The notes under the pieces were generated by a model. It searched no databases, was not told the DNA's origin, and was given only the letters and a program-made list of their open reading frames with translations. The position numbers were made by a program, and so were the translations under genes. This document shows, piece after piece, positions 36,911 through 61,197 of a stretch of DNA of 64,000 bases; the first letter of the stretch is position 1; each line of letters starts with the position of its first letter. The stretch is from Peribacillus sp. FSL P2-0133 (GTDB taxonomy: Bacteria > Bacillota > Bacilli > Bacillales > DSM-1321): assembly GCF_037975445.1 (NCBI RefSeq), contig NZ_CP150254.1, positions 2,912,001-2,976,000 on the forward strand, written 5' to 3'.

Positions 36911-36990
36911 GTTCCCCTTTAGTTCCATAATAAAAAGACGCCTTAAAGACAGCCCTGATCATCAGCTAAGGCACCTGTCAGTTCAACAAA
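36911..36990 (-). repeat. Dispersed terminator repeat, copy 1 (type A)
   Basis: A divergent copy: the core stem (CGCCTTAAAGACAGC on the plus strand) is weakened. It lies 57 bp after the DUF1259 stop codon. General description under copy 14. Confidence 0.75.
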
Positions 36991-37046
36991 ACCAGTATTT
37001 TACCGTGAATTATGTTCATTAAAAAATCAGACAAGTGGGAAATCCA

Positions 37047-37433
37047 TTAGTTCCTTAGCGCTTTTCTGACTTTCTTTGCAAAAACTAATGGATCATCAAC
37101 AGCTTCGATATTAACGTAAATCAAATTCGGATTATCAAATAGCCACTCATTGTGTATGGATGAAACTATTATTCCTTGTTTAAGAATCAAAGCAACAAAA
37201 TTCTCGACTTCACTTTGCAAGAGTGCAACCCTACCTAGGCACAATGCTCGTCCAGTCTGATTATCTCTTGATTCAAATGAGAAAGAAGAGGTTACTCTAA
37301 AACGTTTTCCTAAAATTTTTGCTTTTATTTCATTTCGATTTATGGTTGTCACACATTTTCCACCCGCAAACCCTTCTTGTCCGCCGATAATTCTAGCAAA
37401 CTTTTGACAAATTAATTCATCATTAGATGCCAT
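37047..37433 (-). CDS. DUF1259 (LppY/LpqO-like) domain protein
   Basis: 128 residues without a signal peptide. The C-terminal HNEWLFDNPNLIYVNIEAVDDPLVFAKKVRKAL matches the DUF1259 pattern (HNHW-type, then IY-H/N-EG-type, then DPL-FA). Typical DUF1259 proteins carry two such halves in about 280 residues; this is a single half. Function unknown. Good AGGGGACGAATAG-spaced start. Confidence 0.75.
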   Translation of the reverse strand: MASNDELICQKFARIIGGQEGFAGGKCVTTINRNEIKAKILGKRFRVTSSFSFESRDNQTGRALCLGRVALLQSEVENFVALILKQGIIVSSIHNEWLFDNPNLIYVNIEAVDDPLVFAKKVRKALRN

Positions 37434-37536
37434 CTATTCGTCCCCTCCCTAATATTAATAGGATATGAATCAATGAATAGATCCGAAACGGATATGAATC
37501 TATTTTGAAATGAAAATTATTTTTATATCTTATTTA

Positions 37537-37620
37537 AACTATCCTGCTCCTGTTAGCTCCATAAGAAAAGAGCTGATCATCAAAACTCACTAATGAACTA
37601 ATGCACCCGATGGTTGTATA
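37537..37620 (-). repeat. Dispersed terminator repeat, copy 2a (type C)
   Basis: First of two overlapping copies in tandem. The body reads GAGCTGATCATCAAAACTCACTAATGAACTAATGCACC, the type C variant, with the usual ends. Confidence 0.75.
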
Positions 37621-37680
37621 AGAAAAGGAGCTGCTGATCAGCTTCTGATAATGAAATATATCACCCGTTAATTCAACAAA
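37612..37680 (-). repeat. Dispersed terminator repeat, copy 2b (type B-like)
   Basis: Second tandem copy; ends one base before the lipoprotein stop codon at 37682. Core stem GGAGCTGCTGATCAGCTTC. Confidence 0.75.
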
Positions 37681-37681
37681 A

Positions 37682-38146
37682 TCACTTAACTTTATTATGC
37701 AGTTCAAATGACTCATCAAAGCCATCCCATTTTACAATAATTTGTATAACTTCATCTTTACTTACTTTTGATCCACCTTCTGAACTTCCACTATTTGTAA
37801 ATACCTTTTCGCTAGGTGGTTCAGTGTATGTCTCTGTTTTACTACCGCTTTCAGTGATTGTTTCATAAGTGTATTCAAGTTTTTTCATGGAAGACAGCTC
37901 TTCCAAAGACCCCTTATATTTTAATATAAGTTCATAGCTATCTTCGTTAGAGTATGCAGTTTTACCGTCATCTTCTTCCCATAATTCGGTTCCTTTATAA
38001 GAATATTCGGCTTCCCAATGTTCGCTTTCTCCTATGAATTTATAATCATTGTTAATGGTTTTCGGATTATTATCTTTGTTAGTGGTGTCCGAACCACAAG
38101 CTGTTAAAACCATTATTATAAATAATACGGTGAGTATTTTTTTCAA
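37682..38146 (-). CDS. Small lipoprotein, function unknown
   Basis: About 154 residues with a lipoprotein signal (lipobox VLTAC, Cys near residue 17), then a hydrophilic beta-rich part (YKFIGESEHWEAEYSY, YELILKYKG, QIIVKWDGFDESFEL). It resembles the many small Bacillus lipoproteins without known role. TTG start at 38146 lies 7 nt behind GAGGAGG. Follows the HTH gene and its broken partner in the same direction; the repeat pair follows at once. Confidence 0.8.
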   Translation of the reverse strand: MKKILTVLFIIMVLTACGSDTTNKDNNPKTINNDYKFIGESEHWEAEYSYKGTELWEEDDGKTAYSNEDSYELILKYKGSLEELSSMKKLEYTYETITESGSKTETYTEPPSEKVFTNSGSSEGGSKVSKDEVIQIIVKWDGFDESFELHNKVK

Positions 38147-38188
38147 CTTCACTCCTCCTCAATGATCGAATTGAATCCTTGTTCAATT

Positions 38189-38473
38189 TTACCATTTAAA
38201 GGGTTTCGGTTGGATTTCTATTGGGAAATTTTTTTGCACCTATCCTCCCCCTTTATTTTTATCAATACTTTTATCAATAGCAATGATATTCTCTTTTTCT
38301 ACAATCTTTTTATAATCTTCACTCTCAACCGTTTTTTGAACCATTTCACTTAACATAATCTATTCTTCAGAGGAAGGTTCATACCATTGTTCAGCCAGAA
38401 ACTATTTTCCGAATATATACAAATTTGCTCCTAAACTTATTATCAATAGAAAAAGCAAAATCTTATTCTTCAT
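38189..38473 (-). pseudogene. Membrane-anchored small protein with three in-frame TAG codons
   Basis: The ATG (38471-38473) overlaps the stop region of the HTH gene, as in coupled genes. The frame reads MKNKILLFLLIISLGANLYI, stops at TAG 38402-38404, continues FLAEQWYEPSSEE, TAG 38360-38362, IMLSEMVQKTVESEDYKKIV and on to TAG 38240-38242, then 16 codons to TAA. Composition stays protein-like throughout: one N-terminal membrane helix and a charged outer part. The first TAG most simply replaces a Trp codon. TAG is an ordinary stop elsewhere here (opuCA), so decay is the simplest reading. Confidence 0.65.
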
Positions 38474-38957
38474 ATATCCCTATACCTTTGTCTTTCTCGA
38501 TAGTCCCCGCCTCGTGTAATTCATTTAAACGACTTAAACTCTCTTCTTTATTAAAAGAACTATGCCAACGATAATCATATTGATCCAATATACGGTAATG
38601 GTTACTAATCAAATTTTGTTGCAAACGAAAATCCCCTCTATACTCGATTTCTTTCCACCATATCTTACCACCCATTGTTTTTTCTTTAGGCGTACCACCA
38701 TTTTTTATAGCAATTAACTGAACAAATTCAACTGGATTGTCACCAATAGATGCTACCAACAATTGGCTATGATTAAACAAAGCACAAAATGCAACAACGG
38801 TGGTCCAATTGGCTTCTGTTCTTCTTTTTTCAATTTGAACTAGTGTTTTTTTTGAAATCCCTAGAATTTCAGACATCTTATCTTGAGAAAAACTTTGTTC
38901 TGTTCGGACAAGTTTCATTTTTTCTGATATTAAATTGATGAATTCTTCTTTTTCCAT
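38463..38957 (-). CDS. XRE-type helix-turn-helix regulator (164 aa)
   Basis: N-terminal HTH (about 10-65: LVRTEQSFSQDKMSEILGISKK) followed by a domain of about 95 residues with no family name known to me (GGKIWWKEIEYRGDFRLQQNLISNHYRI). The last codons overlap the start of the small membrane protein relic at 38473, so the two were once a coupled pair. A perfect 24-bp palindrome covers the ribosome binding site region, which suggests autoregulation. Confidence 0.85.
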   Translation of the reverse strand: MEKEEFINLISEKMKLVRTEQSFSQDKMSEILGISKKTLVQIEKRRTEANWTTVVAFCALFNHSQLLVASIGDNPVEFVQLIAIKNGGTPKEKTMGGKIWWKEIEYRGDFRLQQNLISNHYRILDQYDYRWHSSFNKEESLSRLNELHEAGTIEKDKGIGIYEE

Positions 38958-38974
38958 ATATACTAAATACTCCT

Positions 38975-38998
38975 TTTTAGTGTAATTTTACACTAAAA
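38975..38998. promoter_or_regulatory. Perfect 11-2-11 palindrome, probable autoregulatory operator
   Basis: TTTTAGTGTAA, TT, TTACACTAAAA: a perfect inverted repeat ending 17 bp before the HTH gene's ATG and overlapping its ribosome binding site (AAAGGAG). Confidence 0.75.
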
Positions 38999-39116
38999 GT
39001 ATTATTTTTCAACAAAAAATCCTATTTTTGAATAAAAAGCAACTTTAAAACAGAAAAAAGCATGAAATAACTTGCTCTAAATAAGTTTGAGATGGGAATA
39101 TTTCTTAATTAAAGCT

Positions 39117-39203
39117 TGTTGAACTAACGCCCCGTTAGCTATATAAAAAAAGAGCTGCCGAAGCAACTCCCTTATTGAAGTAAAGCACCTGATTGTTGAA
39201 TAA
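39117..39203 (-). repeat. Dispersed terminator repeat, copy 3 (type B)
   Basis: Body GAGCTGCCGAAGCAACTC then TTATTGAAGTAAAGCACC. It begins 10 bp after the stop codon of the small membrane protein at 39213, supporting that gene. Confidence 0.85.
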
Positions 39204-39212
39204 GAACAATAA

Positions 39213-39377
39213 TTATAAACTCATTAAATTCACAGTAACAATTATTGCTAATGAAGCCCATACAAGAAAAAGGATTGCAGCAAGATGCTGGGATACTTCC
39301 TCTTTTATAGCTTTTATTAATGTTAATATAAAACTATATCCAAAAATGAAAAATAAAATTGTATATAAGAAAAACAA
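39213..39377 (-). CDS. Small two-helix membrane protein (54 aa)
   Basis: Below the usual length cut-off, but well supported. TTG lies 9 nt behind AAAGGA (an ATG at 39386 sits too close to that site). It encodes two hydrophobic helices (FLYTILFFIFGYSFILTL and AILFLVWASLAIIVTVNLM) joined by a charged loop (KAIKEEVSQH). A terminator repeat follows the stop codon by 10 bp. Function unknown. Confidence 0.6.
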   Translation of the reverse strand: MFFLYTILFFIFGYSFILTLIKAIKEEVSQHLAAILFLVWASLAIIVTVNLMSL

Positions 39378-39472
39378 TATATACATTCCTTTCGTAATAC
39401 GTTAGTTCTATAAGTCTTGCAGAGGTGACACAAACTGTGAGGTAAAATTTAAGTTAAAAAGGACAAAAAAGA

Positions 39473-39655
39473 TTACTCTTTCTTATCCTTTTCAAGTAAC
39501 ACAATTATTCTATCAAGTTTTTGTTCGATACGATCTGACTTGCTTGGCTGTTTAGTAACGAGTGACCGTACAAGAAAAAACACTCCAGAAAATATCCCAA
39601 ATATACAAATAAGGAAAAATATCGAATATATTGCATCGCCGCCATTAATGGTCAT
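39473..39655 (-). CDS. Small membrane protein with coiled-coil tail
   Basis: About 60 residues: one membrane helix (IYSIFFLICIFGIFSGVFFLV) then a charged helical tail (KSDRIEQKLDRIIVLLEKDKKE) with a heptad-like pattern. ATG at 39655 follows AAAGGTGGG. No function known; this shape is common among Bacillus small proteins. Confidence 0.65.
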   Translation of the reverse strand: MTINGGDAIYSIFFLICIFGIFSGVFFLVRSLVTKQPSKSDRIEQKLDRIIVLLEKDKKE

Positions 39656-39800
39656 AATAGTTCCCACCTTTACAGATTGACTAAGTATACCATAATTATC
39701 CAAAACACAGTTCGACTATACAGCGCTTAATGAATTAACCTCCAGTTTTTAGCCTTGAAATAAAGTTTGATTAAATTAATGAACCTTGTAAAAAGCAAAT

Positions 39801-39848
39801 AGAAAAAGCGTGTTTTGAAAAAAAGATCGATCAAAACACGCTTTTTCT
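39801..39848. terminator. Strong bidirectional hairpin terminator
   Basis: An 18-bp perfect stem (39801-39818 with 39831-39848) with T/A-rich arms, 110 bp beyond the stop codon of the CMD gene. Confidence 0.8.
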
Positions 39849-39958
39849 ATATTCAATTGAATCATTCTTTTATAAAAAAGTTTGATCATTCCGTGATTCT
39901 TATGCCATTAAAGCGCCCGCTTGCTGAAAATTTTTACTTATATAGAGATAAAAACTTC

Positions 39959-40405
39959 TTATTTTTCGGCAGTTGCGAAATTCCCCATTGAAATGGAGAG
40001 TCTATTCCAACTATTAATTTGATTGATCAAAATAACAAGATCTACATAGTCTTTTTCACTAAAATGGATACGCACTCGATTATAAAGATCATCAGGTACA
40101 CCCTTAGTTGGAACTAACGTCACATGTTCAGTTAATTCTAATGCCGCTTTTTCAGCATCTGTGTAAAAATTACAATCTCTCCATGCACTTACGCAGTATA
40201 AACGCTGTTCCGTTTCACCCATTTTTCGTGCCTCAGAGGTATGCATATTAAGACAAAAAGCACAGCCATTAATTTGAGAAGCACGGATTTTAATTAGTTC
40301 ACGCAGTTTACGGTCTATTTCAGTAGATTTAGTATACTTCTCCATTTCCATCATAATGTTAATTGCTTCAGGTGCTACTTCAAGATAATTAATGCGTTGT
40401 TCCAT
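39959..40405 (-). CDS. Carboxymuconolactone decarboxylase/AhpD-like protein
   Basis: About 148 residues, helical, with the AhpD-type redox motif CAFCLNMHTSEA (CxxC plus His). The family contains alkylhydroperoxidase D-like enzymes and true decarboxylases; the CxxC-x3-H form suggests peroxide or disulphide reduction. The second ATG (40405) has an 8-nt gap behind AGGAGG; the first is too near. Divergent from the MocR regulator at 40598, its likely controller. Confidence 0.88.
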   Translation of the reverse strand: MEQRINYLEVAPEAINIMMEMEKYTKSTEIDRKLRELIKIRASQINGCAFCLNMHTSEARKMGETEQRLYCVSAWRDCNFYTDAEKAALELTEHVTLVPTKGVPDDLYNRVRIHFSEKDYVDLVILINQINSWNRLSISMGNFATAEK

Positions 40406-40597
40406 TTCCATTCCTCCTAAAATAATTAAAAGCTTATATTACCCAAAAGAGGGAATTATATTAATAAAGGACTTTTTGAAATTCCATGTTACATTCCCCT
40501 TTTCAATGAATTATATATAATGCTATTATTCACTTCCGTTGTCATTTCGAAAAGGTACAGTTTATACTATTTAAAAATGACAGATGAGGTGCATAGA
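40406..40597. promoter_or_regulatory. Divergent CMD/MocR control region
   Basis: 192 bp holding both promoters. No repeat stands out enough to name an operator. Confidence 0.4.
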
Positions 40598-42316: not shown

Positions 42317-42327
42317 TAATACTGACA

Positions 42328-43077: not shown

Positions 43078-43150
43078 GATATAACCTACCTAATATTTTT
43101 TAGGTTTACTGTTCCCATAAGTTTTAAAAATAATTATTTGTATTTTCTTT

Positions 43151-43240
43151 ATGAACTAAACTACCTCGATAGCTCCATAAAGAAAAAGCTGACTTAAAGA
43201 CAGCTCTGATCTTCAGCTAAAGCACCCGATAGTTCTATAA
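43151..43240 (-). repeat. Dispersed terminator repeat, copy 5 (type A)
   Basis: Begins 47 bp after the stop codon of the DedA gene (43287). Core AAAAAGCTGACTTAAAGACAG on the plus strand. Confidence 0.85.
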
Positions 43241-43286
43241 GCTCTAAATATAATTTTATTAAAGTCTTCCATCTAAACCGTCACTT

Positions 43287-45584: not shown

Positions 45585-45646
45585 GAAAAGCTTATGTGAG
45601 TAGTACAAACTGGACATGCGTTAAGCTAAAATGCCGACAGCTCGAA

Positions 45647-46066
45647 TCACGCTTTTCTGGTCGAACCTAGAACCTCCAAATAATGCTGATTGTACATAAT
45701 GCCTAGGATGTTCCCAAAGGGATCAACCACGGAGGCAGTAATGAACCCCTCACCGCGAACTGTGGGTGCTTCGTGTTCTTTCGCTCCCATGGACAACAGC
45801 TTCTCGAAAGTTGCTGTCACATCATCGACGTGCCAGTACACGACAGCACCACCGGCCTGACCGGTCGACGAACCATCGGGCGCGTAGCTGCTATCGATCA
45901 GGCCAAGCTCGTGCTGGTAGTCGCCGATGCGAAACTCGGCATATCCTGGGCGTTCGAAGTATGGGTCGATACCCAACAGCTCGGCGTACCACTTCTTCGC
46001 CGCCACTAGATCAGCCGCCCAAAAACTGACGGTGGTAAGTCCTCGTAATGTCTTTGTGTCGCTCAT
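45647..46066 (-). CDS. VOC/glyoxalase superfamily protein, foreign composition
   Basis: About 139 residues, one beta-alpha-beta-beta-beta pair: LTTVSFWAADLVAAKKWYAE, FRIGDYQHELGLI, VVYWHVDDVTATFEKLL, SVVDPFGNILGIM. VOC proteins bind a metal and act as dioxygenases, lyases or drug-binding proteins; His and Glu ligands are partly present. The DNA is strikingly rich in GC (runs such as CGCCGCC, GGCGCGTAGC) against AT-rich neighbours, which indicates recent transfer. ATG at 46066 follows GAGGAGG. Confidence 0.88.
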   Translation of the reverse strand: MSDTKTLRGLTTVSFWAADLVAAKKWYAELLGIDPYFERPGYAEFRIGDYQHELGLIDSSYAPDGSSTGQAGGAVVYWHVDDVTATFEKLLSMGAKEHEAPTVRGEGFITASVVDPFGNILGIMYNQHYLEVLGSTRKA

Positions 46067-46317
46067 ATTCGATATCCTCCTCAATGTCGAGTATGTAACT
46101 GTACTTTAATATTTAGGGTCGCCGGGTTATTTCCTAGTTGCTGTTCCAATAGCTATTGTTAACGTCTAATGCTAACAACAGTATGTCAGTGGAGGTGAAT
46201 ATTTTTCAAAAGTGCTTTGAACATTTATTCCTTTGATTAACTTCGATTTCCTTACGAAAGATCCCTTCTCTTATTCAAGAAAATGGCCCAATTGTTGAAC
46301 AAAAATCAAACTGCACG

Positions 46318-46403
46318 GTTGAACTAGCTTGCTTTTAGCTCCATAAGAAAAGAACTGCTGATCAGCTCCTGCATTGAAGTAAAGCACCTGTTAGTTCTAT
46401 AAA
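46318..46403 (-). repeat. Dispersed terminator repeat, copy 7 (type B)
   Basis: Ends 7 bp before the stop codon of the gene at 46410. Preceded (46284-46317) by the extra GGCCCAATTGTTGAACAAA segment shared with copies 4 and 13. Confidence 0.85.
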
Positions 46404-46409
46404 GAGATT

Positions 46410-46676
46410 TTATTTTTTAACCTGTTTATTTAAAAATACAAGAAATACTCTTTGAGATTTTTCCTTTTTTATAATTCTTTTTACACGCATTGTACTTTGT
46501 AAATACTGCCTAACATTTCTATTTACAAAAAACAGTCGATGATATTTTTCATCTTCGTAAATATTTTTAAACCAAGTGTGATTCTTGAGCATTTCTATAT
46601 TTCGATCAATTTTTCGAGTATCCAAAGAATTATCACCGAATCCTGCGGAAAAAATGCCTAAAAGAAAATCTAACAT
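46410..46676 (-). CDS. Unknown small protein (88 aa)
   Basis: No family recognised. N-terminal hydrophobic start (MLDFLLGIFSAGFG), then a polar helical part and a basic C-terminus (MRVKRIIKKEKSQR). The ATG lies 11 nt behind AGGGGG. A terminator repeat directly follows, which supports it as a real transcription unit. Confidence 0.55.
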   Translation of the reverse strand: MLDFLLGIFSAGFGDNSLDTRKIDRNIEMLKNHTWFKNIYEDEKYHRLFFVNRNVRQYLQSTMRVKRIIKKEKSQRVFLVFLNKQVKK

Positions 46677-47076
46677 AGCTAAATTATCCCCCTGAATATA
46701 TTCAACTACTTGTACAAGTAATATATAGCATTTTTATGCTTCGATGATTTCTTGTTAACTAATCTGCCCCTACAGTTTAAGTACATGCTTTCACAATCCC
46801 AATAGTGTAGAGCCTTTTGAGACACAATCTAATCACATAAAAAATAGAGTTCAATATTCTCATATGACTTGTATCAGAGCGCTTATCCTTTTCAGGATAG
46901 CGTCCTTTAATGGAATAGCTTGAATTTATCCTCATTCTTATAAATTTCACTTATTTCAGTTCAACTAACGCACTCCTTTAGTTTATTTACGCTCGTTTTC
47001 CCGGCCTAATTTGGTACTAATAGACGGTTCTATTCATATTCTTATAAGAAAACAATGAGAAGGAGTGCAAAGTCAG
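46677..47076. other. Intergenic region before the sugar dehydrogenase gene
   Basis: Contains a hairpin-forming GCGCTTATCC/GGATAGCG pair near 46878-46907 and a partial dispersed repeat (about 46959-46985, GTTCAACTAACGCAC). No gene was seen. Confidence 0.45.
46959..46985 (-). repeat. Partial dispersed repeat (end only)
   Basis: GTTCAACTAACGCACTCCTTTAGTTT-type sequence matches the ends of the 85-bp element joined without its terminator body. Confidence 0.4.
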
Positions 47077-48489
47077 TTGATAAAAGTTAAGGTTGGTTTA
47101 CGGCCCATTGTAAAGAATATAAATTTACCTACTGTTTTAAAGACAACTATACTTCCAGGTGACTCAGTTGAAAGATTATTTATTGCAACCCAGGTAGGAG
47201 AGATCTTTTACATAGGAAACGGAGTTATAAGGACTTTTTTAGATATTCGCCAGCGAATCCTAAAACTAGGTACTTCTGGTGGCGGATATGATGAACGGGG
47301 ATTGCTGGGGCTAGCGTTTCATCCCGAATTTTATTATAACGGTCTGTTTTATCTTCATTATTCAGTAGCTGGAACACAAGGACCAGGTGCTCTTCCTGAA
47401 TCTTTTAATCCTGACCCGTGTGATCCTAGAACTTTAAACCTAAGGTGGATGAATAGAGAAACTCAATATAATCATATTGATACAATTGAAGAATGGATTT
47501 TACAATCGAATGGTCAACCCCAAAAACGACGGACTTTACTTAACTTAAGAAGACCATTTTTAAATCATAATGGGGTCAATAGTTTAAACTTTTCACCTGA
47601 AACAGGAAAACTTGTTTTAACAACCGGGGATGGTGGATCAGGCTATAGTCCATTTAACTTAAGCCAGGACGATCTGGAAATCGCCGGTAAAATAATTGAA
47701 ATTGATGTAGATAAGAATATATCCTTCAATAATCCACCCATTGTCACACGTTTTAATGAACTTCCCACAACTATTCAGGAAACGCTCATGGTAATGGCCA
47801 AAGGGGTTCGCAATATACCAGGCATTTCATTTCAAAGGTTTTATAATCAGTATATTAAATATGCGGGAAATGTCGGCCAAAATTTGGTCGAATCGATTTT
47901 TTCATTCGTTCATTATAAACCAATACCGGTTACTGAGCTTGTTCAAGCTTCTTTCATGAATTCTGAAGCTGACAAAGAAGGATTCATTAACTTTGGCTGG
48001 CGAGGTTGGGAAGGTTCTTTTCCTACTTCGATTATAAGAGGCTGCACTGAAAATCAGACCTTGGATGAGAAAACAATTGCATATTTCAATGAAGCAGTAA
48101 CACTTTCAGCGAGTCGTCTTCAGCCTTTAACCAGTTATTTTCATAAAGATACCAGACCCGATAAGTTTGGAGGAACTGCACTTACAGGAGTGCAAGCCTA
48201 TATGGGGAATACAATCCCTGGTTTAACAGGAAGCGTTGTGTTTACCGATCTTGCTCGGAAAGAATCTCAACCTCAGGTTAGAGGGGCTTTAGCTTATACC
48301 ACCTTAAGACCAAATGGTGAACAAAATGATTTTAGTGTGATACAAACCGATTATGATTTTGGGTCTCAATCAGCCTATTATGTTAGTTTGGGAACGAATC
48401 TGAATCAAACCAGCTTATATTTAGCGGTTTATGGCTCTATGAAAGTGACTGATTTTAACCAAGGCACTGTTTTTGAATTAGTTCCATGA
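47077..48489 (+). CDS. Soluble PQQ-type sugar dehydrogenase-like protein
   Basis: About 470 residues, a beta-propeller of the glucose/sorbosone dehydrogenase family: LFIATQVGEIFYIGNG, DERGLLGLAFHPEFYYNGLFYLHYS, NHNGVNSLNFSPETGKLVLTTGDGG and GKIIEIDVD. These contain the catalytic His (AFHP) and PQQ/Ca-site regions. No signal peptide is visible, unusual for a family that normally acts outside the cell. No PQQ synthesis genes were seen. The GTG of the longer frame overlaps AAGGAG, so the TTG at 47077 is preferred (11-nt spacing). Confidence 0.85.
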   Translation: MIKVKVGLRPIVKNINLPTVLKTTILPGDSVERLFIATQVGEIFYIGNGVIRTFLDIRQRILKLGTSGGGYDERGLLGLAFHPEFYYNGLFYLHYSVAGTQGPGALPESFNPDPCDPRTLNLRWMNRETQYNHIDTIEEWILQSNGQPQKRRTLLNLRRPFLNHNGVNSLNFSPETGKLVLTTGDGGSGYSPFNLSQDDLEIAGKIIEIDVDKNISFNNPPIVTRFNELPTTIQETLMVMAKGVRNIPGISFQRFYNQYIKYAGNVGQNLVESIFSFVHYKPIPVTELVQASFMNSEADKEGFINFGWRGWEGSFPTSIIRGCTENQTLDEKTIAYFNEAVTLSASRLQPLTSYFHKDTRPDKFGGTALTGVQAYMGNTIPGLTGSVVFTDLARKESQPQVRGALAYTTLRPNGEQNDFSVIQTDYDFGSQSAYYVSLGTNLNQTSLYLAVYGSMKVTDFNQGTVFELVP

Positions 48490-48572
48490 AAACAATAAAT
48501 TTCCACTTATTCTTGATAAATCTCTTACATGGATCTAATGAACCGAAATTAAAACCATGTGATGGAGAATCA

Positions 48573-49124
48573 CTAAATTATAATCATTTTTAATCTTTTA
48601 AAAATGATTATAGCAATTTCAACCCATAACCAGCTATAAATGATGGCAAATAAAAAGCCAAATATAAGAAATGAAAAGGAAACAGAGACGGCTGGACCTA
48701 AAACCGGAAAGTGAAAAATAAATATTAGACTTATAATTCCTAACATTAAAAGAATGGCACCAGTAGCAATAATACTTAACCTCTTCTTAAAAAGGCAAAA
48801 GGATGCCCCTATTCCAAGTCCTAACAATCCTGTTGTAAAAGGAAATATAATTAGTTCAGTTGGCTGTAGGATGAATAACAGCATAATTGTCAGAAAGCAG
48901 GACATTGCTCCTAATGGAATGGAAAACATGGAACATAACAGGATAGGTGCAGTGGCCAGCGGACTTATAAAATATCCTATCCCTGGTAAAACCCCAGCAG
49001 CCTGCAGAATAGCAGCAATACAGGCAAAAATAGACACTAAAATGAGCTTCATCGTTTTTTTATGTTTATTGAATATTATTTGAGATAAACGAACCTCATC
49101 AGAAATAGGTTTAAAAAAATACAC
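48573..49124 (-). CDS. Polytopic membrane protein of unknown function
   Basis: 183 residues with about five hydrophobic helices after a short charged N-terminus (LSQIIFNKHKKTMK). The pattern (small residues, GIGYFISPLATAPIL, TTGLLGLGIGASF) is like YybS or ECF-transporter substrate subunits, but no motif decides it. Start either GTG at 49124 behind GAGGTG or the internal ATG (MKLILVSIF). Confidence 0.65.
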   Translation of the reverse strand: MYFFKPISDEVRLSQIIFNKHKKTMKLILVSIFACIAAILQAAGVLPGIGYFISPLATAPILLCSMFSIPLGAMSCFLTIMLLFILQPTELIIFPFTTGLLGLGIGASFCLFKKRLSIIATGAILLMLGIISLIFIFHFPVLGPAVSVSFSFLIFGFLFAIIYSWLWVEIAIIIFKRLKMIII

Positions 49125-49329
49125 CTTTCCACCTCATTCTAAATGGTTTATGCGTTACTTTACATTATATTTACCATTTATTAGAGGTGGAACAATTATT
49201 ATTAATCCAAGCATCAATATCCTCTGTAATGAAAAAATAAGCTTAATAAAAAACCTCTCTAAACCTTGATCAATCATACAAAGTAAAGAAGTCCATTCGC
49301 GGAGGAAGTAAGTAATTTCCTTTGCCTAT

Positions 49330-49355
49330 AAAAAAACAAGGCCTTATTGGCCCTG
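49330..49355 (-). terminator. Terminator of the cupredoxin gene
   Basis: A 7-bp stem with one G-T pair (49337-49343 with 49349-49355) followed by seven T on the minus strand, just after the stop codon. Confidence 0.85.
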
Positions 49356-49359
49356 CATT

Positions 49360-49749
49360 TTATTCGACTATTACTTTCCCAACCATTCCTTCCTGGAAAT
49401 GGTACCGACATATCAGTTCATATGTACCGGGCTGTTTCGGATTCACGTTAATGTTTTTTTCTTCACCTGGCTGGACCTCAACGTCAATTCCGAGCTTTTC
49501 AACTGTGAAGGTGTGCTCTTTACTGCCTTTGTTTTTCAATATCACCGTTGTGGCTGTTCCATTCGGAATAGTGATGACTTTCGGATTAAAGAAATCATCG
49601 TTCAACTCGAACTCAATCGATTTCCTTGTCTCCATAGGCTGTGTTACAACACCGGATTCGGCAAATACACCGAGTGGGCCTAGTGTTGTCACAACTACAA
49701 ACATTGCAAGTACACCGACCAATCCTGTTACCCACTTTTTCACAGACAT
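49360..49749 (-). CDS. Secreted cupredoxin (plastocyanin-like)
   Basis: About 129 residues: a signal peptide (to about residue 30, ...GVFA) and one cupredoxin barrel. Type-1 copper ligands: His in SKEHTFTVE, Cys in ELICRYHFQEGMVG, followed by His and Met (C-x2-H-x4-M). Probably an extracytoplasmic electron carrier or copper-binding protein. ATG at 49749 sits 7 nt behind GGAGGG. Not linked to the multicopper oxidase at 20 kb. Confidence 0.88.
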   Translation of the reverse strand: MSVKKWVTGLVGVLAMFVVVTTLGPLGVFAESGVVTQPMETRKSIEFELNDDFFNPKVITIPNGTATTVILKNKGSKEHTFTVEKLGIDVEVQPGEEKNINVNPKQPGTYELICRYHFQEGMVGKVIVE

Positions 49750-49902
49750 TCGCAATCCCTCCTTTCCTCTATTTTTTTCTAATTCATAAAATATTATTAC
49801 TATAAATTTGGTTGCGTGCTTTCAGATAGTAACTTTTTTATCTGAAACAGTGAAAAGAAAAGGATCTACTCTAATGACGTTCTTCTAGAATCCTATTCTT
49901 AT

Positions 49903-49990
49903 GCAACTAAACTGCCTGTTTAGCTCCATAAGAAAAAGAGCTGCCAAAGCAACTCCCTTATTGAAGTAAAGCACTTATTATTTGAATAAG
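49903..49990 (-). repeat. Dispersed terminator repeat, copy 8 (type B)
   Basis: Body GAGCTGCCAAAGCAACTC then TTATTGAAGTAAAGCAC, nearly the same as copy 3. Ends 10 bp before the stop of the gene fragment at 50001. Confidence 0.85.
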
Positions 49991-50000
49991 TAGTTACCTT

Positions 50001-54258: not shown

Positions 54259-54319
54259 TTGCAGCTTATATCAAATAATGGCGGGGCAAATCATGGACTT
54301 TTAAAACACAGGTCCTTAT

Positions 54320-54394
54320 TCCACTGACATGCCCCGTTAGCTCCATAAGAAAAGAGCTGCTGATCGTCACAGCTCTCTAATGAACTAACGCACC
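54320..54394 (-). repeat. Dispersed terminator repeat, copy 9 (type C)
   Basis: Body GAGCTGCTGATCGTCACAGC, then TCTCTAATGAACTAACGCACC, the type C variant. Lies between convergent mocR and paiA genes, 200 bp after the paiA stop codon. Confidence 0.8.
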
Positions 54395-54423
54395 ATGGAC
54401 TTTAAGTACAATCCTTTACAAAC

Positions 54424-54455
54424 TGAAGAGAAGCTGCCAATATGACAGCTCCGTT
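54424..54455 (-). repeat. Partial dispersed repeat (terminator core only)
   Basis: AAGCTGCCAATATGACAGCTCCG carries the type A hairpin core without the outer ends. Read leftward it could terminate paiA. Confidence 0.55.
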
Positions 54456-55511: not shown

Positions 55512-55534
55512 AATTAACTCCTTAGCTTGGATTT

Positions 55535-56273: not shown

Positions 56274-56290
56274 TATGCTCCCTATTTTTC

Positions 56291-56379: not shown

Positions 56380-56381
56380 CA

Positions 56382-56951
56382 TTATTTTAAGAATTGAAGC
56401 CATTTATGTTCTGGTTCGTGCAATTGTATAGCATACTGAAGCCATTTTTTCCTCTGGTTATCTAGATTGTCTAATATCGTCATAAAGTCTTGATGGTCTT
56501 TTTCTCTTGTGTTTTTTACTTTATATAAAAGTACAATTTCTGGATTTAGATAAGGAATGCCTGTATCAGAATAACTCCAAACTGACTTAAGCGGATGAGA
56601 AATCGTTAAATCCCTTCTGAATTTCCAATCATAAAACCTTGTTTCATTTAGAAGAACTTCTAATTTATCTCCATTTGACTTATTCAAAGCGTGTATTTCG
56701 TGAATAGGTAACTCTAAAAACTCATTTTCCCAAGTATAGAATTTACCTTTAATAACCTTTTTAAAATCCCATTCTTTAAGATTTTCCTTCAAATATAATT
56801 TGTCTTTTCGAAATAGTGCAATCTCTATATCTTGATGTTGTCTTGTTTCTCTACCAATAAAAAGATCAATTGCCCAACCACCTGCAAAGAACCACGTTTT
56901 ATTAAATCCTGCCATTAAAGAAGTAATGCTATGACATTGCTCAAATGACAT
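56382..56951 (-). CDS. Nucleotidyltransferase-fold protein (aminoglycoside adenylyltransferase-like)
   Basis: 189 residues. The N-terminal motif FFAGGWAIDLFIGRETRQHQDIEIALF has the GG/W and the two catalytic Asp/Glu residues (DIEI) of this polymerase-beta-like family. LEVLLNE and PEIVLLYKVKNTREKDHQDF complete the core. Members modify small molecules such as aminoglycosides or lincosamides; the substrate here is unknown. Directly followed by a terminator repeat. Confidence 0.85.
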   Translation of the reverse strand: MSFEQCHSITSLMAGFNKTWFFAGGWAIDLFIGRETRQHQDIEIALFRKDKLYLKENLKEWDFKKVIKGKFYTWENEFLELPIHEIHALNKSNGDKLEVLLNETRFYDWKFRRDLTISHPLKSVWSYSDTGIPYLNPEIVLLYKVKNTREKDHQDFMTILDNLDNQRKKWLQYAIQLHEPEHKWLQFLK

Positions 56952-57026
56952 ATGAACCCCCAGACTAAAAAACTTATATCCTTATCTATTCTTTTTCTAT
57001 TTTGAATAACCTCTATACTGAAACCT

Positions 57027-57118
57027 TCTTCAACTAAACTGCCCCTTTAGTTGCATAAGAAAAAGCTGCCTAGAAGACAGCTCCGATTTTCAGCTAACTC
57101 ACCCGTTATGGCAACAAG
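57027..57118 (-). repeat. Dispersed terminator repeat, copy 11 (type A)
   Basis: Typical copy with core GCTGCC-TAGAA-GACAGC. Lies 58 bp after the stop codon of the small membrane protein relic at 57176. Confidence 0.9.
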
Positions 57119-57175
57119 AAAACAGCTTACTAATAGAGTTTAGAGATTTATTTCAAGCACCTATTAGTACAATTA

Positions 57176-57340: not shown

Positions 57341-57344
57341 AGGA

Positions 57345-57620
57345 AAAAACCTCCCATAAAATACCGAAAGTATGTAAAAATTCCCCTTTTAAATTATACC
57401 CTGGATTGCAACACTCTTCCTTTAACCCAGGAGCTGACATTGAGGCCGAAAATATACGAGTAACTGCTTGGTTCGGTTCAGGCTCTTCTGCAAAGAAATA
57501 AGTGTCTCCTTTGTTTCCAAAAATCGCCTTATCATCAAGACCAGGCAATACCTTTTCTTGTCCATGGCTATCATATATAAAATCTTTTTTACTCATATCA
57601 TAAAATATATTCAAATTCAA
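57345..57620 (-). CDS. Unknown protein or fragment (about 80-120 aa)
   Basis: A leftward frame from TTG (57620) or ATG (about 57596) with protein-like sequence (KDFIYDSHGQEKVLPGLDDK, NPGYNLKGEFLHTFGIL). Its nominal end at 57246 runs over the start of the small membrane gene, so the true 3' end is unclear and a frameshift is possible. No family recognised, no clear ribosome binding site. Confidence 0.35.
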
Positions 57621-57632
57621 ATACAGGACATG

Positions 57633-57779
57633 TTATGTGTTTTTATTAAATAGCTTCAAATTCAAGAACCTAATAAGAAAGGTTACTAAGACATTTCCAA
57701 AAATAATAAAAAAAGTTAAAATTACCCACAACAAACTGATTTCGGCATGTATAATGATAGATAGCAAACTCACCATTGT
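57633..57779 (-). CDS. Possible small membrane protein (about 47 aa)
   Basis: From an internal ATG (near 57779) the frame gives one or two hydrophobic stretches (ISLLWVILTFFIIFGNVLVTFLI) and a short basic tail. No ribosome binding site stands out. Divergent from the secreted protein gene at 57815. Confidence 0.3.
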   Translation of the reverse strand, partial: TMVSLLSIIIHAEISLLWVILTFFIIFGNVLVTFLIRFLNLKLFNKNT

Positions 57780-57814
57780 TTTGCAGCCAAACTGTTGAAT
57801 AAAAAGGAGTGGCA

Positions 57815-58273
57815 ATGTTGGAAAGGAAAAAAATCTTCTATTGGATCATCCCGATGCTATTAATTGTCTTTTTAGGAAATGCTGTGTACGCTACAGAACA
57901 ACAAGAAACATCTAAAGTGAAACAATCTTCCGCATTAAAGGAGCAATTCTACCTAGAAGATGTAGTAAAAATTTACGTACCATCTACATATAATGTTAAC
58001 CAACCAATTGATAATACTCCATATGTTAACAAGTCGTTAGAAGAATTCTCAAGAATGTTTGGAGGAGCAACAGCGATCGATGGGACAGGATCGTGGTTAT
58101 CTGATGATAATCAATTGGTCAAGGAGAAAGTAACGATTGTATATAGCTATGCAGAAGATTTGGATAAGAAAAAAATTAATCAAGTAGTTGCCTATGCCAA
58201 GTCTCTAAAGGAAGAGATGAAACAATCATCAGTATCTCTTGAAGTAAATGGGAAGATGTATTTTATTGAATAA
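57815..58273 (+). CDS. Secreted protein of unknown function (about 152 aa)
   Basis: Signal peptide MLERKKIFYWIIPMLLIVFL... with cleavage near VYA, then a small soluble domain: LEDVVKIYVPSTYNVNQPID, LEEFSRMFGGATAIDGTGSW and VTIVYSYAEDLDKKKINQVV. No family recognised. AAAAGGAG precedes; ATG 57815 or TTG 57818 are both possible. Ends at its own terminator. Confidence 0.75.
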   Translation: MLERKKIFYWIIPMLLIVFLGNAVYATEQQETSKVKQSSALKEQFYLEDVVKIYVPSTYNVNQPIDNTPYVNKSLEEFSRMFGGATAIDGTGSWLSDDNQLVKEKVTIVYSYAEDLDKKKINQVVAYAKSLKEEMKQSSVSLEVNGKMYFIE

Positions 58274-58283
58274 CTGATGTAAG

Positions 58284-58318
58284 AAGCCTAGAGATTTTAT
58301 ATCTCAAGGCTTTTTAGT
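58284..58318 (+). terminator. Terminator of the secreted protein gene
   Basis: A 12-bp stem with an A-A mismatch (58284-58295 with 58301-58312) followed by T4. Confidence 0.8.
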
Positions 58319-58463
58319 CTTTAAGAATAAGAGTTTATTGGTGAAATGAAGGTTCCAATAGGGTAAGCTGTCCGTTGTTTATAACGAAACATAGTTTTTA
58401 CGTGAAAATTCCTGCTGTTATTCAATTATCTGGCCCAATTGTTAACAAAGGTCAAACAGCACT

Positions 58464-58550
58464 CTTCAACTATCCTGCCCCGATAGTTCCATAAGAAAAA
58501 GCTGCCTTAGAGACAGCTCCGATCTTCAGCTAACGCACCCGTTTGTTGAA
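58464..58550 (-). repeat. Dispersed terminator repeat, copy 13 (type A, near consensus)
   Basis: Ends 9 bp before the stop codon (58559) of the cysteine hydrolase gene. Preceded by the extra GGCCCAATTGTTAACAAAGG segment (58434-58463) shared with copies 4 and 7. Confidence 0.9.
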
Positions 58551-58558
58551 GATGATTA

Positions 58559-59116
58559 TTATCGGTAATTATTGTGAACAGGGTTAAACAATTCTTCATA
58601 AGAATTTCTAACAAGTGAAAAATTGTCTACATTATAGTGACCGTGAAGGGTTTCATTGTGATGAAGGATTATTTGTTTTGCAGATAAGTTTTTGGAATCA
58701 GAAGTAGAATGTCCATCACCAACTAATGTCACATCAAAATGATTGATTGTTGCTGTTCTAACAGCTGTATCAATACAATGTTCCGTCTTACATCCCATTA
58801 TTACAATATGATCTACATTGTTTTTACTTAAATGTTCGAGTAATGGAGTGCCATAAAATGAATTTGTGGCAGCTTTATCAAATATGATAGCAGTTGATGG
58901 TACTTTAATATCCCTGTGTATCTGGAATCCAGGTCCTTCTCCTTTTGAAACATCTAAATCTCTTATAAAAACAACGGTGATACTTTCATTTATCGCTTTT
59001 TCAATTACAGTATTAATGTTATTAACGATTTTTTCTTTCTCAAAGACTCCTTGTTCTTCTTTATTACCTTCTATTAATTCCTGTTGAGCATCGATTATCA
59101 GTAATGTTTGTTTCAA
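58559..59116 (-). CDS. Cysteine hydrolase (isochorismatase-like)
   Basis: 185-residue cytoplasmic enzyme with the Asp-Lys-Cys triad: LLIIDAQQELIEGN, FDKAATNSFYGTPLLEHL and IMGCKTEHCIDTAVRTA. Family members split isochorismate, nicotinamide, ureidoacrylate or similar; the exact substrate is unknown. A terminator repeat follows at 9 bp. Confidence 0.9.
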   Translation of the reverse strand: MKQTLLIIDAQQELIEGNKEEQGVFEKEKIVNNINTVIEKAINESITVVFIRDLDVSKGEGPGFQIHRDIKVPSTAIIFDKAATNSFYGTPLLEHLSKNNVDHIVIMGCKTEHCIDTAVRTATINHFDVTLVGDGHSTSDSKNLSAKQIILHHNETLHGHYNVDNFSLVRNSYEELFNPVHNNYR

Positions 59117-59237
59117 TATTTTCCCCCCTAAAGTTATTAGCAGTTAGTTTTTTCCTGTTTTTCATTAAATATCAGATAGTATTTTAAGCACTTCTTACTA
59201 AGCTCTTTATATTTTCGTCAAAAGATTTACTAATACC

Positions 59238-59323
59238 TTCTTGAACTATCCTGCCCCTTTAGTTCCATAAAGAAAAAGCTGCCTTAAAGACAGCTCCGAT
59301 CTTCAGCTAACGCACCTGTTAGT
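59238..59323 (-). repeat. Dispersed terminator repeat, copy 14 (type A, reference copy)
   Basis: Reference for the family. Read on the minus strand: CTAACAGGTGCGTTAG-like small hairpin, a GAAGATCG spacer, then GAGCTGTC-TTTAA-GGCAGC plus a T-rich run (a Rho-independent terminator), a TTATGGAACTAAA piece and a third pairing element around AACTAAAGGGGCAGGATAGT. Lies 117 bp after the MFS stop codon (59440). Confidence 0.9.
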
Positions 59324-59439
59324 ATGGTGCGATTCTTATAAAAGAATCGCGCGTTTAATGGAAGCAAATTCATTTTTTGTTCATAATCTGCTTAACTACT
59401 CATGGAGACGTTATATAAGAATATATCAATCATTAAGAT

Positions 59440-60609
59440 CTATGTTGCTTTTCTTACGTTAATAGAGAGCATTCTAAATAACAAAATAGATGCAAACAAT
59501 GCGATGATCCCATTAATAAGGAATGAAACTTCAGCGCCAAATATCTGCCATAACAAACCTGTAAGCAAAGAAGCCGGAAATAGACCAATCCCCGTAATCA
59601 TAGCATATAAACCAAGTGCAGTTCCTTTACTTTCTGGATTGGATATATCAGCAACCAGCGCCTTTTCAACCCCTTTAGTAAAAGCTGAATAAAGCCCATA
59701 TAATGTAAATAGACCGATTAAACCAATCGTTGTATTTACTTCCGCAAAACCAATATATACAAATCCATATAACGCATATCCTACAGTTAGTATACCTCTT
59801 CGTCCGTATCGATCTGAAAACGCTCCGGAAATATATGAAAATAAAGACGCAGTAAGGTGAAAGAGTAGATATAATAATAGAACATTGGCAGTAGAAACTC
59901 CTAAATCTGCTGCTCTTAGTAAAAGAAACGAATTTGATGAATTCACAATAGTAAAGAGAAAAACAATAAACAATAATTTTTTCACATTCGGATTTAGAAG
60001 TTTCACGTCAAGTTTAGGTTTCGTGGTAGGCGGCATTTCTTTAACTATTGGTTCATACTTTCTTTCCTTTATGCCCAATAACAGTAACCAACCAATAATT
60101 ACAGGGATTAAAGAATACAGGAAAACATCATGAATGTTTTGATTTCCATTCATCTGTAATATGAAATAAGCAGTTCCAATCCCGATAGAAGCACCCAACA
60201 TATCCATCATTTGATGTAATCCGAAAACTCTTCCTTGTTTATTTTTTCCTCCAGACTCAGATATAAGAGCATCTCTTGGAGCCGTTCGTATCCCTTTTCC
60301 CGTACGATCTATCAGTTTCCATATGAAAACGCCGACCCAGGAACTTGAAATAATCAAAGATATTCTTCCTAAACCTGATAAGCCATAACCAATCAAAGCA
60401 AACCCTTTTCTATTTTTCAAACGATCCGAACGACGACCAGAGAAAAATTTCAAAAAACTTGCCAAGGTTTCTGATAAACCATCTACAATCCCAATAATTA
60501 AAGGGCCTGACGAAGCAAGAATAATTGGTATTAAAGGAGTCACCATATAGGTGCCCATATCTGTAAAAAAACTAACGAAGCTTAATATCCAAATGTTGCT
60601 GTTTTTCAA
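59440..60609 (-). CDS. MFS transporter
   Basis: About 389 residues, 12 predicted helices. MFS motifs: FFSGRRSDRLKNRKGFALIG (loop 2-3), DRTGKGIRTAPRDALI and AFSDRYGRRGILTVGYALYG (loop 8-9). The RTAPRDALI stretch is typical of a group of uncharacterised MFS exporters. TTG start at 60609 behind AAGGGG. Substrate unknown. Confidence 0.9.
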   Translation of the reverse strand: MKNSNIWILSFVSFFTDMGTYMVTPLIPIILASSGPLIIGIVDGLSETLASFLKFFSGRRSDRLKNRKGFALIGYGLSGLGRISLIISSSWVGVFIWKLIDRTGKGIRTAPRDALISESGGKNKQGRVFGLHQMMDMLGASIGIGTAYFILQMNGNQNIHDVFLYSLIPVIIGWLLLLGIKERKYEPIVKEMPPTTKPKLDVKLLNPNVKKLLFIVFLFTIVNSSNSFLLLRAADLGVSTANVLLLYLLFHLTASLFSYISGAFSDRYGRRGILTVGYALYGFVYIGFAEVNTTIGLIGLFTLYGLYSAFTKGVEKALVADISNPESKGTALGLYAMITGIGLFPASLLTGLLWQIFGAEVSFLINGIIALFASILLFRMLSINVRKAT

Positions 60610-60631
60610 TTCGAAACCGCCCCTTAAATAT

Positions 60632-60682
60632 AAATTGCTGATGATCAACTCTGGTAATGAACTAAATCACCCATTAGTTCAA
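60632..60682 (-). repeat. Partial dispersed repeat (type C half)
   Basis: GCTGATGATCAACTC then AATGAACTAAATCACCCATTAGTTCAA: the gene-proximal half of a type C copy, here just upstream of the MFS start rather than after a gene. Confidence 0.6.
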
Positions 60683-61197
60683 GTGAACCACTTCACAATA
60701 ATGAACAATTTACAAATGAAGAAATATTAATAAAATTTCCCAATAAATGAAATTATATCATTTTATAAACTATAGAGTAAGCACCAAAATTTCTGAACGT
60801 TCAAAATATTTAAGTTTAATCATTGTTCTCCCCTTCCTTGTTTTTTTCATCATTTATTATGTTTTATTTCCTCTTCAACTAAAATGCCCGATACATTCCC
60901 TACTCCGAGTGTTATTGAACAATCGCCTTAATCATATCTTCGTCTTTAACCAACTTTATTTAATGCAACATCTTTATTGTCATTAACATTATCAGGTCTT
61001 TTGAATCGGTCACCATCTTCCTATTTAAATATTATTTGGTAAAAAATGTAGGTTGATAGCATTATTTGATTTGGAATGTATTGTAAAACATTTTATTTTG
61101 TAGTAACCTATCAGCGATTTAAATCGCACCGACCTAATAGCGCACTAGTCCATGGGTAATAAACAGCTGTTACTATTTCAATAAGGGAGGAATTGTA
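60683..61197. other. Divergent intergenic region
   Basis: Contains one more end-fragment of the dispersed repeat (60872-60896, CTTCAACTAAAATGCCCGAT), a perfect 14-bp palindrome GCGATTTAAATCGC (61114-61127) and AACAGCTGTT (about 61165). The palindromes are candidate operators for the nuclease gene at 61198. No gene was supported. Confidence 0.5.

What the first reader, a model, noticed from the sequence alone, without database searches (positions are those of the whole stretch)
36911..60896. A dispersed 85-bp repeat that is a portable, orientation-fixed transcription terminator
Fourteen near-complete copies and about six partial ones lie between 36.9 and 60.9 kb; at most a decayed trace (27246-27290) lies in the first 36 kb. 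All have one orientation. Read on the minus strand each has a small hairpin, then a GAGCTGTC-loop-GGCAGCT stem with T5 (a Rho-independent terminator), then a third inverted pair. Most begin 3-60 bp after the stop codon of a leftward gene (37682, 39213, 42328, 46410, 50001, 56382, 58559), even where the gene is tiny or broken. Copy 10 has a compensated stem pair, which suggests selection on the fold. This looks like a small mobile or recombining 3'-end element that spreads terminators. Dispersed Bacillus repeats (bcr-type) are known, but I know of no description of one as a terminator family.
Basis: partly seen in the sequence, partly recalled or inferred. Interest (0 to 1): 0.75.

Follow-up and report, generated by a model that had tools for sequence, protein, structure and literature searches.

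The report
Integron-like gene cassettes in Bacillaceae
The repeat is not just a spreading stop signal: it looks like the recombination site of a little-noticed gene-shuffling system in soil bacilli, which works much like integrons but seems to use a different enzyme and puts a transcription stop inside the site.

Summary
The repeat is real: 13 near-complete copies plus partial ones lie in the window, all read on the minus strand. They belong to at least 148 copies in this 5.8-Mb genome (Peribacillus by its named relatives), mostly packed in arrays. Each ~100-bp element is palindrome P1 (CTTATTGAACTAAC-GGGTGC-GTTAG...), a terminator hairpin that covaries, and palindrome P2 (CTTATGGAACTAAC-GGGGCAG-GTTAGTTGAATAAG). 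A 279-aa Xer-like tyrosine recombinase lies inside such arrays in Peribacillus and other genera; the copy found here is frameshifted.

The DNA between elements behaves as cassettes. Of 559 intervals in 39 array segments, 209 recur elsewhere; their neighbours differ in 218 of 250 comparisons. Without IS110 and recombinase segments, 517 of 1264 ends of shared segments fall inside an element, against 5% by chance. One cassette gain/loss leaves a single hybrid element joined at P2. Element orientation follows replication direction: 144 of 145 copies here, 119 of 120 in four other complete genomes.

I conclude it is an integron-like gene-cassette system whose double-core sites carry a terminator. 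The IntI family and attC-type covariation were tested and not met, so I do not file it as an integron. Recombination is inferred, not demonstrated, and joints are not resolved to the base.

The parts
36911..36990 (-). element copy (P1-terminator-P2, decayed ends)
   Evidence: nhmmer, genome 2948911-2948990, 63.5 bits
37529..37624 (-). element copy
   Evidence: 47 bits
37613..37680 (-). partial tandem element
   Evidence: 16-34 bits
39114..39206 (-). element copy (P1 near-palindromic over its whole length)
   Evidence: 57 bits
42231..42321 (-). element copy
   Evidence: 66 bits; terminator hit 42285-42271
43144..43241 (-). element copy
   Evidence: 84 bits
45488..45587 (-). element copy
   Evidence: 81 bits; terminator hit 45551-45529
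46317..46404 (-). element copy
   Evidence: 47 bits; terminator hit 46370-46350
49895..49991 (-). element copy (G001 has the same copy without P2)
54312..54410 (-). element copy with an extra terminator-like hairpin at 54430-54452
   Evidence: 77 bits; terminator hit 56350-56330
57023..57119 (-). element copy
   Evidence: 87 bits; terminator hit 57084-57062
58460..58556 (-). element copy
   Evidence: 100 bits; terminator hit 58520-58498
59234..59325 (-). element copy
   Evidence: 101 bits; terminator hit 59297-59275
60619..60684 (-). partial element
   Evidence: 15-28 bits
36992..37528 (-). cassette: DUF1259 (PF07485) gene 37047-37433; homologous intervals in arrays of G001 and G020
45589..46316 (-). 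cassette: glyoxalase/VOC gene 45647-46084; homologous interval in an array of G016
56382..57022 (-). cassette-like interval: gene 56382-56951 resembling aminoglycoside-2''-adenylyltransferase (PF10706); no homologous interval in the sampled arrays
58558..59233 (-). cassette: isochorismatase gene 58559-59116; homologous intervals in arrays of G023 and G024
46405..49894 (.). multi-gene interval between two elements (genes on both strands); no homologous interval in the sampled arrays

Best explanation
The repeat is the site of a gene-cassette shuffling system of Bacillaceae. Each full site has two palindromes that look like recombinase-binding sites, P1 with spacer mostly GGGTGC and P2 with spacer mostly GGGGCAG, around a transcription terminator. 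A Xer-like tyrosine recombinase (279-280 aa), itself carried in the arrays, most likely joins one site to another (P1 with P1, or P2 with P2) on double-stranded DNA. This cuts out, inserts or swaps the gene lying between two sites. The terminator ends each cassette's transcript at its own border. Sites of an array share one orientation, which the asymmetric spacers would enforce. Arrays in both chromosome arms point the same way relative to replication, perhaps because other orientations allow harmful inversions or, as in chromosomal integrons, make excision too frequent. Shown: arrays, anatomy, terminator covariation, recurrence of cassettes with changed neighbours, ends of shared DNA inside elements, the replichore rule, a recombinase inside arrays. 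Inferred: that this recombinase acts at P1/P2, the strand chemistry, terminator activity, and the cause of the orientation rule. In the regions I fetched, this genome has only a frameshifted copy of the recombinase, so its arrays may be frozen unless the enzyme comes from elsewhere (a P. simplex plasmid carries an unbroken copy).
For: At least 148 copies in the own genome (150 of 2693 candidates scored), mostly clustered. 35 of 36 genus genomes (E<=0.01) and 42 of 43 family genomes (E<=1e-4) have it. Recombinase copies in arrays of G007, G016, G017, G020, G028 and G034, some of them broken; element parts lie close on both sides in G007, G017, G028 and G034, only downstream in G016 and G020. 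54 of 78 recombinase loci from named contigs have at least one element (E<1e-3) in the fetched flanks (up to 8 kb); 37 of 38 with two or more are uniformly oriented. 140 elements from 42 loci not labelled Peribacillus give the same P1/P2 consensus with a different terminator. Ends of shared segments (>=90% identical, 300-6000 bp): 652 of 1711 inside elements, null 5.0%; without IS110 and recombinase segments 517 of 1264, null 5.3%, maximum 7.8% in 200 shifts. Intervals: 209 of 559 recur, neighbours same 32, different 218, unknown 104; without IS110/recombinase 196 recur, same 31, different 203, unknown 92. A hybrid single element at a 524-bp cassette difference between G000 and G001, joint at P2. 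Orientation: 144 of 145; by dif position 23/24, 37/37, 28/28, 31/31 in G001, G016, G019, G020. Terminator stem covariation z 11.7.
Against: No recombination assay. The crossover is not resolved: per-pair change-point estimates put 64 of 83 (5' ends) and 35 of 54 (3' ends) in P1 or P2 and 16 and 14 in the terminator part, but the palindromes make up about two thirds of the element, so this estimate alone does not single them out; only the averaged profile shows its main steps at P1 (3' side) and P2 (5' side). The hybrid element has one contrary base in P1. Of 37 length differences between collinear stretches only 8 rows (about 6 separate events) show two or more elements against one, and 17 involve no element. 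Shared-segment ends are not independent of each other, and 'different neighbour' depends on the thresholds used. 24 of 78 recombinase loci show no element by this model, among them Lysinibacillus, Sporosarcina and Sutcliffiella loci. 8 of 11 window intervals have no homologous interval in the sample. Exceptions to orientation: one in the own genome (5 kb past dif), one in G001, 1 of 14 on contig 1 of P. loiseleuriae, one of 39 in Neobacillus DY30 even if the terminus is placed to suit, and mixed contigs L161 and G007:C133.
Confidence: 0.8

Rival explanations
1. One reading: a small mobile element (P1-terminator-P2) that inserts after genes and spreads terminators, perhaps a non-autonomous derivative of a mobile element in which the recombinase lies between the palindromes.
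For: In several copies the recombinase gene lies between a P1-bearing part and a P2; 15 copies that I counted as outlying exist outside the arrays in this genome (from the list); the terminator covaries.
Against: The recurring unit is the DNA between elements. The two element-only differences I aligned (region R7 70947; window copy 54312) are not precise insertions. Random copies average 73.6% identity, so this is no recent burst of identical copies. The terminator part follows either neighbour.
Confidence: 0.12
2. Ordinary homologous recombination or natural transformation shuffles genes, and the repeats are just the short homology used.
For: Dispersed repeats can seed such events; long collinear blocks are shared with G001; per-pair joints are spread over the whole element, terminator included.
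Against: Random elements average 73.6% identity over about 100 bp, poor substrates. Ends of shared DNA concentrate in the elements. A recombinase of one family sits in the arrays in many genera.
Confidence: 0.1
3. It is a true integron: attC sites recombined as folded single strands by an IntI-type integrase.
For: Similar layout: one site per cassette, one orientation, orientation tied to replication; core boxes AACTAAC/GTTAGTT resemble the integron boxes (recalled) at 6 of 7 positions; P1 left arm is largely complementary to P2 right arm; IS110-family ISs sit in the sites.
Against: Recombinase scores 95 bits against the integron-integrase model (cut-off 265) but 202 for XerD and 200 for XerA. 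No covariation between P1 left and P2 right arms (z -0.7) or P1 right and P2 left arms (z 1.0). No attI or single platform was seen (not searched systematically); many arrays per genome.
Confidence: 0.08
4. Intergenic REP-type palindromes moved by a RAYT (Y1) transposase.
For: Palindromes in intergenic space.
Against: No Y1 transposase match in the genome (the same search rang in 5 of 14 control genomes). A tyrosine recombinase is associated instead.
Confidence: 0.01

Closest known systems
Sedentary chromosomal integrons / cassette arrays (attC, IntI)
   Same: Arrays of small genes with one recombination site behind each, one orientation, content reshuffled; orientation tied to replication (25 of 30 such integrons in PMC5371416, passages read; inversion is costly and selects integrase loss in PMC11023631, passages read). 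IS1111/IS110-family insertions in the sites (PMC11187229, passages read).
   Different: Recombinase is Xer-like, not IntI; the site carries a terminator between two cores; no attC-type covariation; several arrays and outlying copies per genome; recombinase inside arrays; Firmicutes hosts, where IntegronFinder 2.0 reports one complete integron (Limnochorda) and a few attC clusters (PMC9024848, passages read).
Acinetobacter pdif / dif modules (XerC-XerD)
   Same: Xer-type recombination at short two-arm sites with 6-bp spacers, modules exchanged between sites with like spacers, two alternating module kinds (PMC13141974, passages read).
   Different: P1/P2 are not dif-like; an array-borne recombinase distinct from the xer-like chromosomal genes; the second module kind would be a terminator (or the recombinase); chromosomal arrays with orientation tied to replication.
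Dispersed Bacillus repeats (bcr type; recalled, not tested)
   Same: Dispersed intergenic copies with hairpins.
   Different: Clustered arrays with recombinase, double palindromes, cassette shuffling.
REPIN/RAYT (recalled)
   Same: Palindromic intergenic repeats.
   Different: No Y1 transposase match.

Membership tests
Integron | IntI-type integrase (integron-specific family) | tested here: not met
   TIGR02249 94.8 bits, cut-off 265; XerD 202.1 and XerA_Arch 199.8, both also below their cut-offs. Foldseek best match is XerA 5hxy; IntI4 2a3v ranks 15th (model pLDDT 83.1, pTM 0.58).
Integron | attC-type site recombined as a folded single strand (outer and inner arms paired) | tested here: not met
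   Only the sequence trace of such a fold was tested: no covariation, P1L:P2R z -0.7, P1R:P2L z 1.0 (323 elements). The biochemistry is not testable here.
Integron | attI platform next to a divergent integrase gene with cassette promoter | tested here: inconclusive
   Recombinase inside arrays; it points with the elements in P. frigoritolerans-type loci and against them in e.g. most Neobacillus loci. No base-by-base attI search was made.
Integron | Tandem cassettes, one site each, uniform orientation, shuffled content | tested here: met
   median interval 745 bp; some intervals are multi-gene.
Xer-like tyrosine recombinase | PF00589 domain with R-K-H-R-H-Y catalytic residues and no extra arm-binding domain | tested here: met
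   PF00589 135 bits; R138, K162, H228, R231, H254, Y263 invariant in 28 aligned sequences (which residues are catalytic is recalled); 279 aa.
XerC/XerD housekeeping recombinases | equivalog score over cut-off | tested here: not met
   XerD 202 of 330, XerC 200 of 335 bits; two other strongly matching genes at 1719360 and 3798214 are 29-32% identical to it.
pdif modules | sites resemble dif (XerC and XerD boxes) | tested here: not met
   The dif pattern finds one site in the own genome and in 7 of 8 other Peribacillus genomes, four in G017; P1/P2 arms differ from it by inspection.
REPIN/RAYT | Y1 (PF01797) transposase in the genome | tested here: not met
   0 matches.
Rho-independent terminator | G+C-rich stem followed by T run on the gene strand, conserved as a structure | tested here: met
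   RNA 3' ends not testable here.
Rfam RNA family | match over gathering score | tested here: not met
   No match in the window.

The most novel reading that the evidence does not exclude
Bacillaceae and relatives own a counterpart of the integron that arose separately: a Xer-lineage recombinase and double-core sites P1-terminator-P2 shuffle up to hundreds of cassettes per genome. Arrays are scattered along both replichores and held in register with replication. Cassettes are insulated by a terminator that is itself an exchangeable module.
Probability: 0.7. Interest if true: 0.92.

Novelty: new variant of a known kind. Interest (0 to 1): 0.86.

Why it matters
Integrons are a main route of gene capture in Proteobacteria and are very rare in Firmicutes by current tools (PMC9024848, passages). 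A working counterpart in soil bacilli would explain part of their strain-specific gene content and give a marker set (P1/P2 model plus recombinase) to find it. It offers a second case for testing why cassette arrays are tied to replication direction, and a set of portable terminators and recombination sites for bench use. Seven text searches of the open-access library aimed at such a system found no description of it (I saw listings and abstract starts only); three more looked for comparators. Subscription papers and preprints were not covered.

Tried and rejected
RAYT/REP idea: dropped after no Y1 transposase was found. Single-strand attC fold: attractive by complementarity, dropped for lack of covariation. 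RNAalifold on the 13 window copies shows only the terminator stem, so the covariance model is in effect a sequence model. The 1.6-1.7-kb segments shared by many arrays were first taken for cassettes; they hold IS110-family transposases and were removed for the clean counts together with recombinase segments. Upstream-gene co-orientation alone is a weak signal (126 of 146 against about 80% of random intergenic points). A single sharp crossover base was sought and not found. Viral contigs gave 2 loci, at 34-36% identity. A survey paper on tyrosine recombinases (PMC8138268, passages) names no such group in the passages seen. One search printed 296 recurring intervals; on checking, that number was inflated by empty entries, and one search gives 209; the pair and neighbour counts were unaffected. 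The dif pattern failed in Neobacillus DY30, so its orientation rests on blocks only: 34 plus and 5 minus, with one minus copy at 1.416 Mb inside the plus block.
Full report
THE OBSERVATION. The window is bases 2,912,001-2,976,000 of a 5,810,370-base single-contig genome. Named relatives place it in Peribacillus: contigs of G007, G017 and G034, genomes of the same genus, coincide in length and gene position with GenBank records of P. frigoritolerans RU293, a P. simplex plasmid and Peribacillus sp. Bi96. A profile built from the repeats finds 13 near-complete copies and two clear partial ones between 36.9 and 60.7 kb, all read on the minus strand, and nothing significant before 36 kb. No Rfam family matches the window.

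GENOME-WIDE PICTURE. A model of the 13 copies finds 148 matches (E<=1) in the genome, a lower bound because 150 of 2693 candidates were scored. Most lie in clusters at about 1.03-1.11, 2.81-2.82, 2.95-3.06, 3.48-3.55, 4.60, 4.72-4.74, 4.91-4.98 and 5.12-5.13 Mb. The terminus site dif (B. subtilis sequence recalled, one mismatch) is at 2,796,205. In the seven fetched regions 32 copies (>25 bits) before dif are plus, 112 after it are minus, and one, 5 kb past dif, is plus. Of 15 copies of the list that I counted as outlying, 14 follow the same rule. In other complete genomes of the genus, taking the origin as the antipode of dif, the P1 core fits in 23 of 24 (G001), 37 of 37 (G016), 28 of 28 (G019) and 31 of 31 (G020) cases; the listing for G000 was cut and that for G024 not shown. 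In P. loiseleuriae contig 1, 13 of 14 fit. In Neobacillus DY30 dif was not found; copies lie in a plus block and a minus block with one exception. Genes in the fetched own regions are less strict, 331 of 437 co-directed by a crude ORF caller, so site orientation is not simply inherited from gene orientation.

ANATOMY. The consensus of 519 copies (>35 bits) from 39 segments of 14 genomes is CTTATTGAACTAAC-GGGTGC-GTTAGCTGAAGATC (P1), a hairpin AGCTGTC...GGCAGCT with a T run, then CTTATGGAACTAAC-GGGGCAG-GTTAGTTGAATAAG (P2). The P1 spacer has the GGTG core in 380 of 453 copies and the P2 spacer ends GGCAG in 357 of 444, so they are two distinct sites. The same P1/P2 consensus, with a different terminator, comes from 140 elements in 42 loci not labelled Peribacillus. 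The terminator stem covaries (z 11.7, 0 of 300 shuffles), while the palindrome arms do not covary in any of the four pairings tested (z -1.6 to 1.0). The arms therefore look like protein-binding boxes and the hairpin like a conserved fold.

A RECOMBINASE IN THE ARRAYS. A 279-aa tyrosine recombinase, intact in some copies and broken in others, lies inside arrays in G007, G016, G017, G020, G028 and G034. In G007, G017, G028 and G034 an element part (P1 side and terminator) ends about 90-100 bp before it and a half element, usually P2, follows just after its own terminator; in G016 and G020 only the downstream part is close. This genome has a frameshifted copy at 3,482,526-3,483,359 with the same surroundings on both sides; I found no second close relative in the fetched regions. 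The scan of 84,980 species genomes found 189 relatives of a recombinase alignment; the best 80 gave 78 loci from many genera. In 54 of 78 at least one element lies in the fetched flanks, and in 37 of 38 loci with two or more they share one direction. The gene points with the elements in P. frigoritolerans-type loci and against them in, for example, most Neobacillus loci and P. glennii. It is closest to XerD/XerA by family models, below their cut-offs, and far below the integron model. A predicted structure matches XerA best.

CASSETTES MOVE. Between elements lie 559 intervals of 200-3500 bp (median 745) in the 39 segments. 209 have a homologue (>=85% identity over most of the length) in another place, 177 pairs, and neighbours are the same in 32, different in 218 and unknown in 104 comparisons; without IS110 and recombinase intervals 196 recur, with neighbours same 31, different 203, unknown 92. 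Of 11 such intervals in the window, 3 have a homologue in the sample. Ends of shared segments fall inside elements in 652 of 1711 cases against 5.0% when elements are shifted; without IS110 and recombinase segments 517 of 1264 against 5.3%, maximum 7.8% in 200 shifts. These ends are not all independent. In the averaged profile the P1 outer arm is shared at the 3' end of a shared gene and similarity is at baseline by the P2 right arm, while at the 5' end the P2 outer arm is shared and the P1 outer arm is at baseline; the terminator part is shared above baseline on both sides but in a minority. Per-pair estimates put 64 of 83 (5') and 35 of 54 (3') joints in P1 or P2 and 16 and 14 in the terminator part; as the palindromes are about two thirds of the element, the exact crossover stays open. 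The cleanest event is a 524-bp cassette between two elements in this genome where G001 has one element, whose front matches the first copy, apart from one base in P1, and whose end matches the second copy, the change lying in P2. Of 37 length differences between collinear stretches, 8 rows (about 6 separate events) are of this whole-cassette kind and 17 touch no element.

WHAT THE WINDOW CARRIES. Between the elements lie small accessory genes: DUF1259, a putative lipoprotein (my reading; no Pfam match), HTH (below cut-off), carboxymuconolactone decarboxylase, DUF3888, VTT, two GNAT acetyltransferases, VOC, cupredoxin, MarR, 5'-nucleotidase, an aminoglycoside-adenylyltransferase-like gene, isochorismatase, MFS. 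Some intervals hold several genes on both strands.

INTERPRETATION. The fuller reading is a gene-cassette system: two recombination cores around a terminator, such a site behind each cassette, a Xer-like recombinase in the arrays. It works like an integron in layout and replication register (PMC5371416, PMC11023631: passages read) and like Acinetobacter dif modules in site type (PMC13141974: passages read), but fails at least one defining test of each. A further parallel is that IS110-family insertion sequences sit in P1/P2 arms, as related ISs do in attC sites (PMC11187229: passages read). That the recombinase acts on these sites, and that the hairpin ends transcripts, is inferred.

Noticed in passing
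L124 3364-5029 and 5054-6849; L106 13177-14798; L111 18201-19842: Three kinds of IS110-family insertion sequences lie next to or inside the P1 or P2 arms of elements; one kind (L106, L111) sits at the same place in the left arm of a P1 and of a P2. The exact ends of the other two were not mapped. A parallel to the IS1111-attC group of integrons.
   Followed up: partly
own genome 3,482,526-3,483,359 (minus; locus L084): The own copy of the array recombinase is frameshifted; other broken tyrosine recombinases lie in arrays at 4,965,932 and 1,097,005.
   Followed up: partly
own genome 2,796,762-2,797,289 (L077): A tyrosine recombinase gene with a stop codon lies about 0.5 kb from the dif site.
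   Followed up: no
G017:C2 48596 and 56446 (P. simplex plasmid): The 176-kb plasmid carries two dif-like sites (2-3 mismatches) in opposite orientation as well as the recombinase and elements: possible Xer modules.
   Followed up: no
L161 (Bacillus sp. OV166); L094/L095 (G007:C133): Contigs with elements in both orientations, exceptions to one direction per locus.
   Followed up: no
window 54430-54452: A second terminator-like hairpin with the element's stem sequence lies just upstream (on the minus strand) of the 54312 copy.
   Followed up: no
window 61198-62877: A NucA/NucB-like DNase domain protein just outside the array.
   Followed up: no
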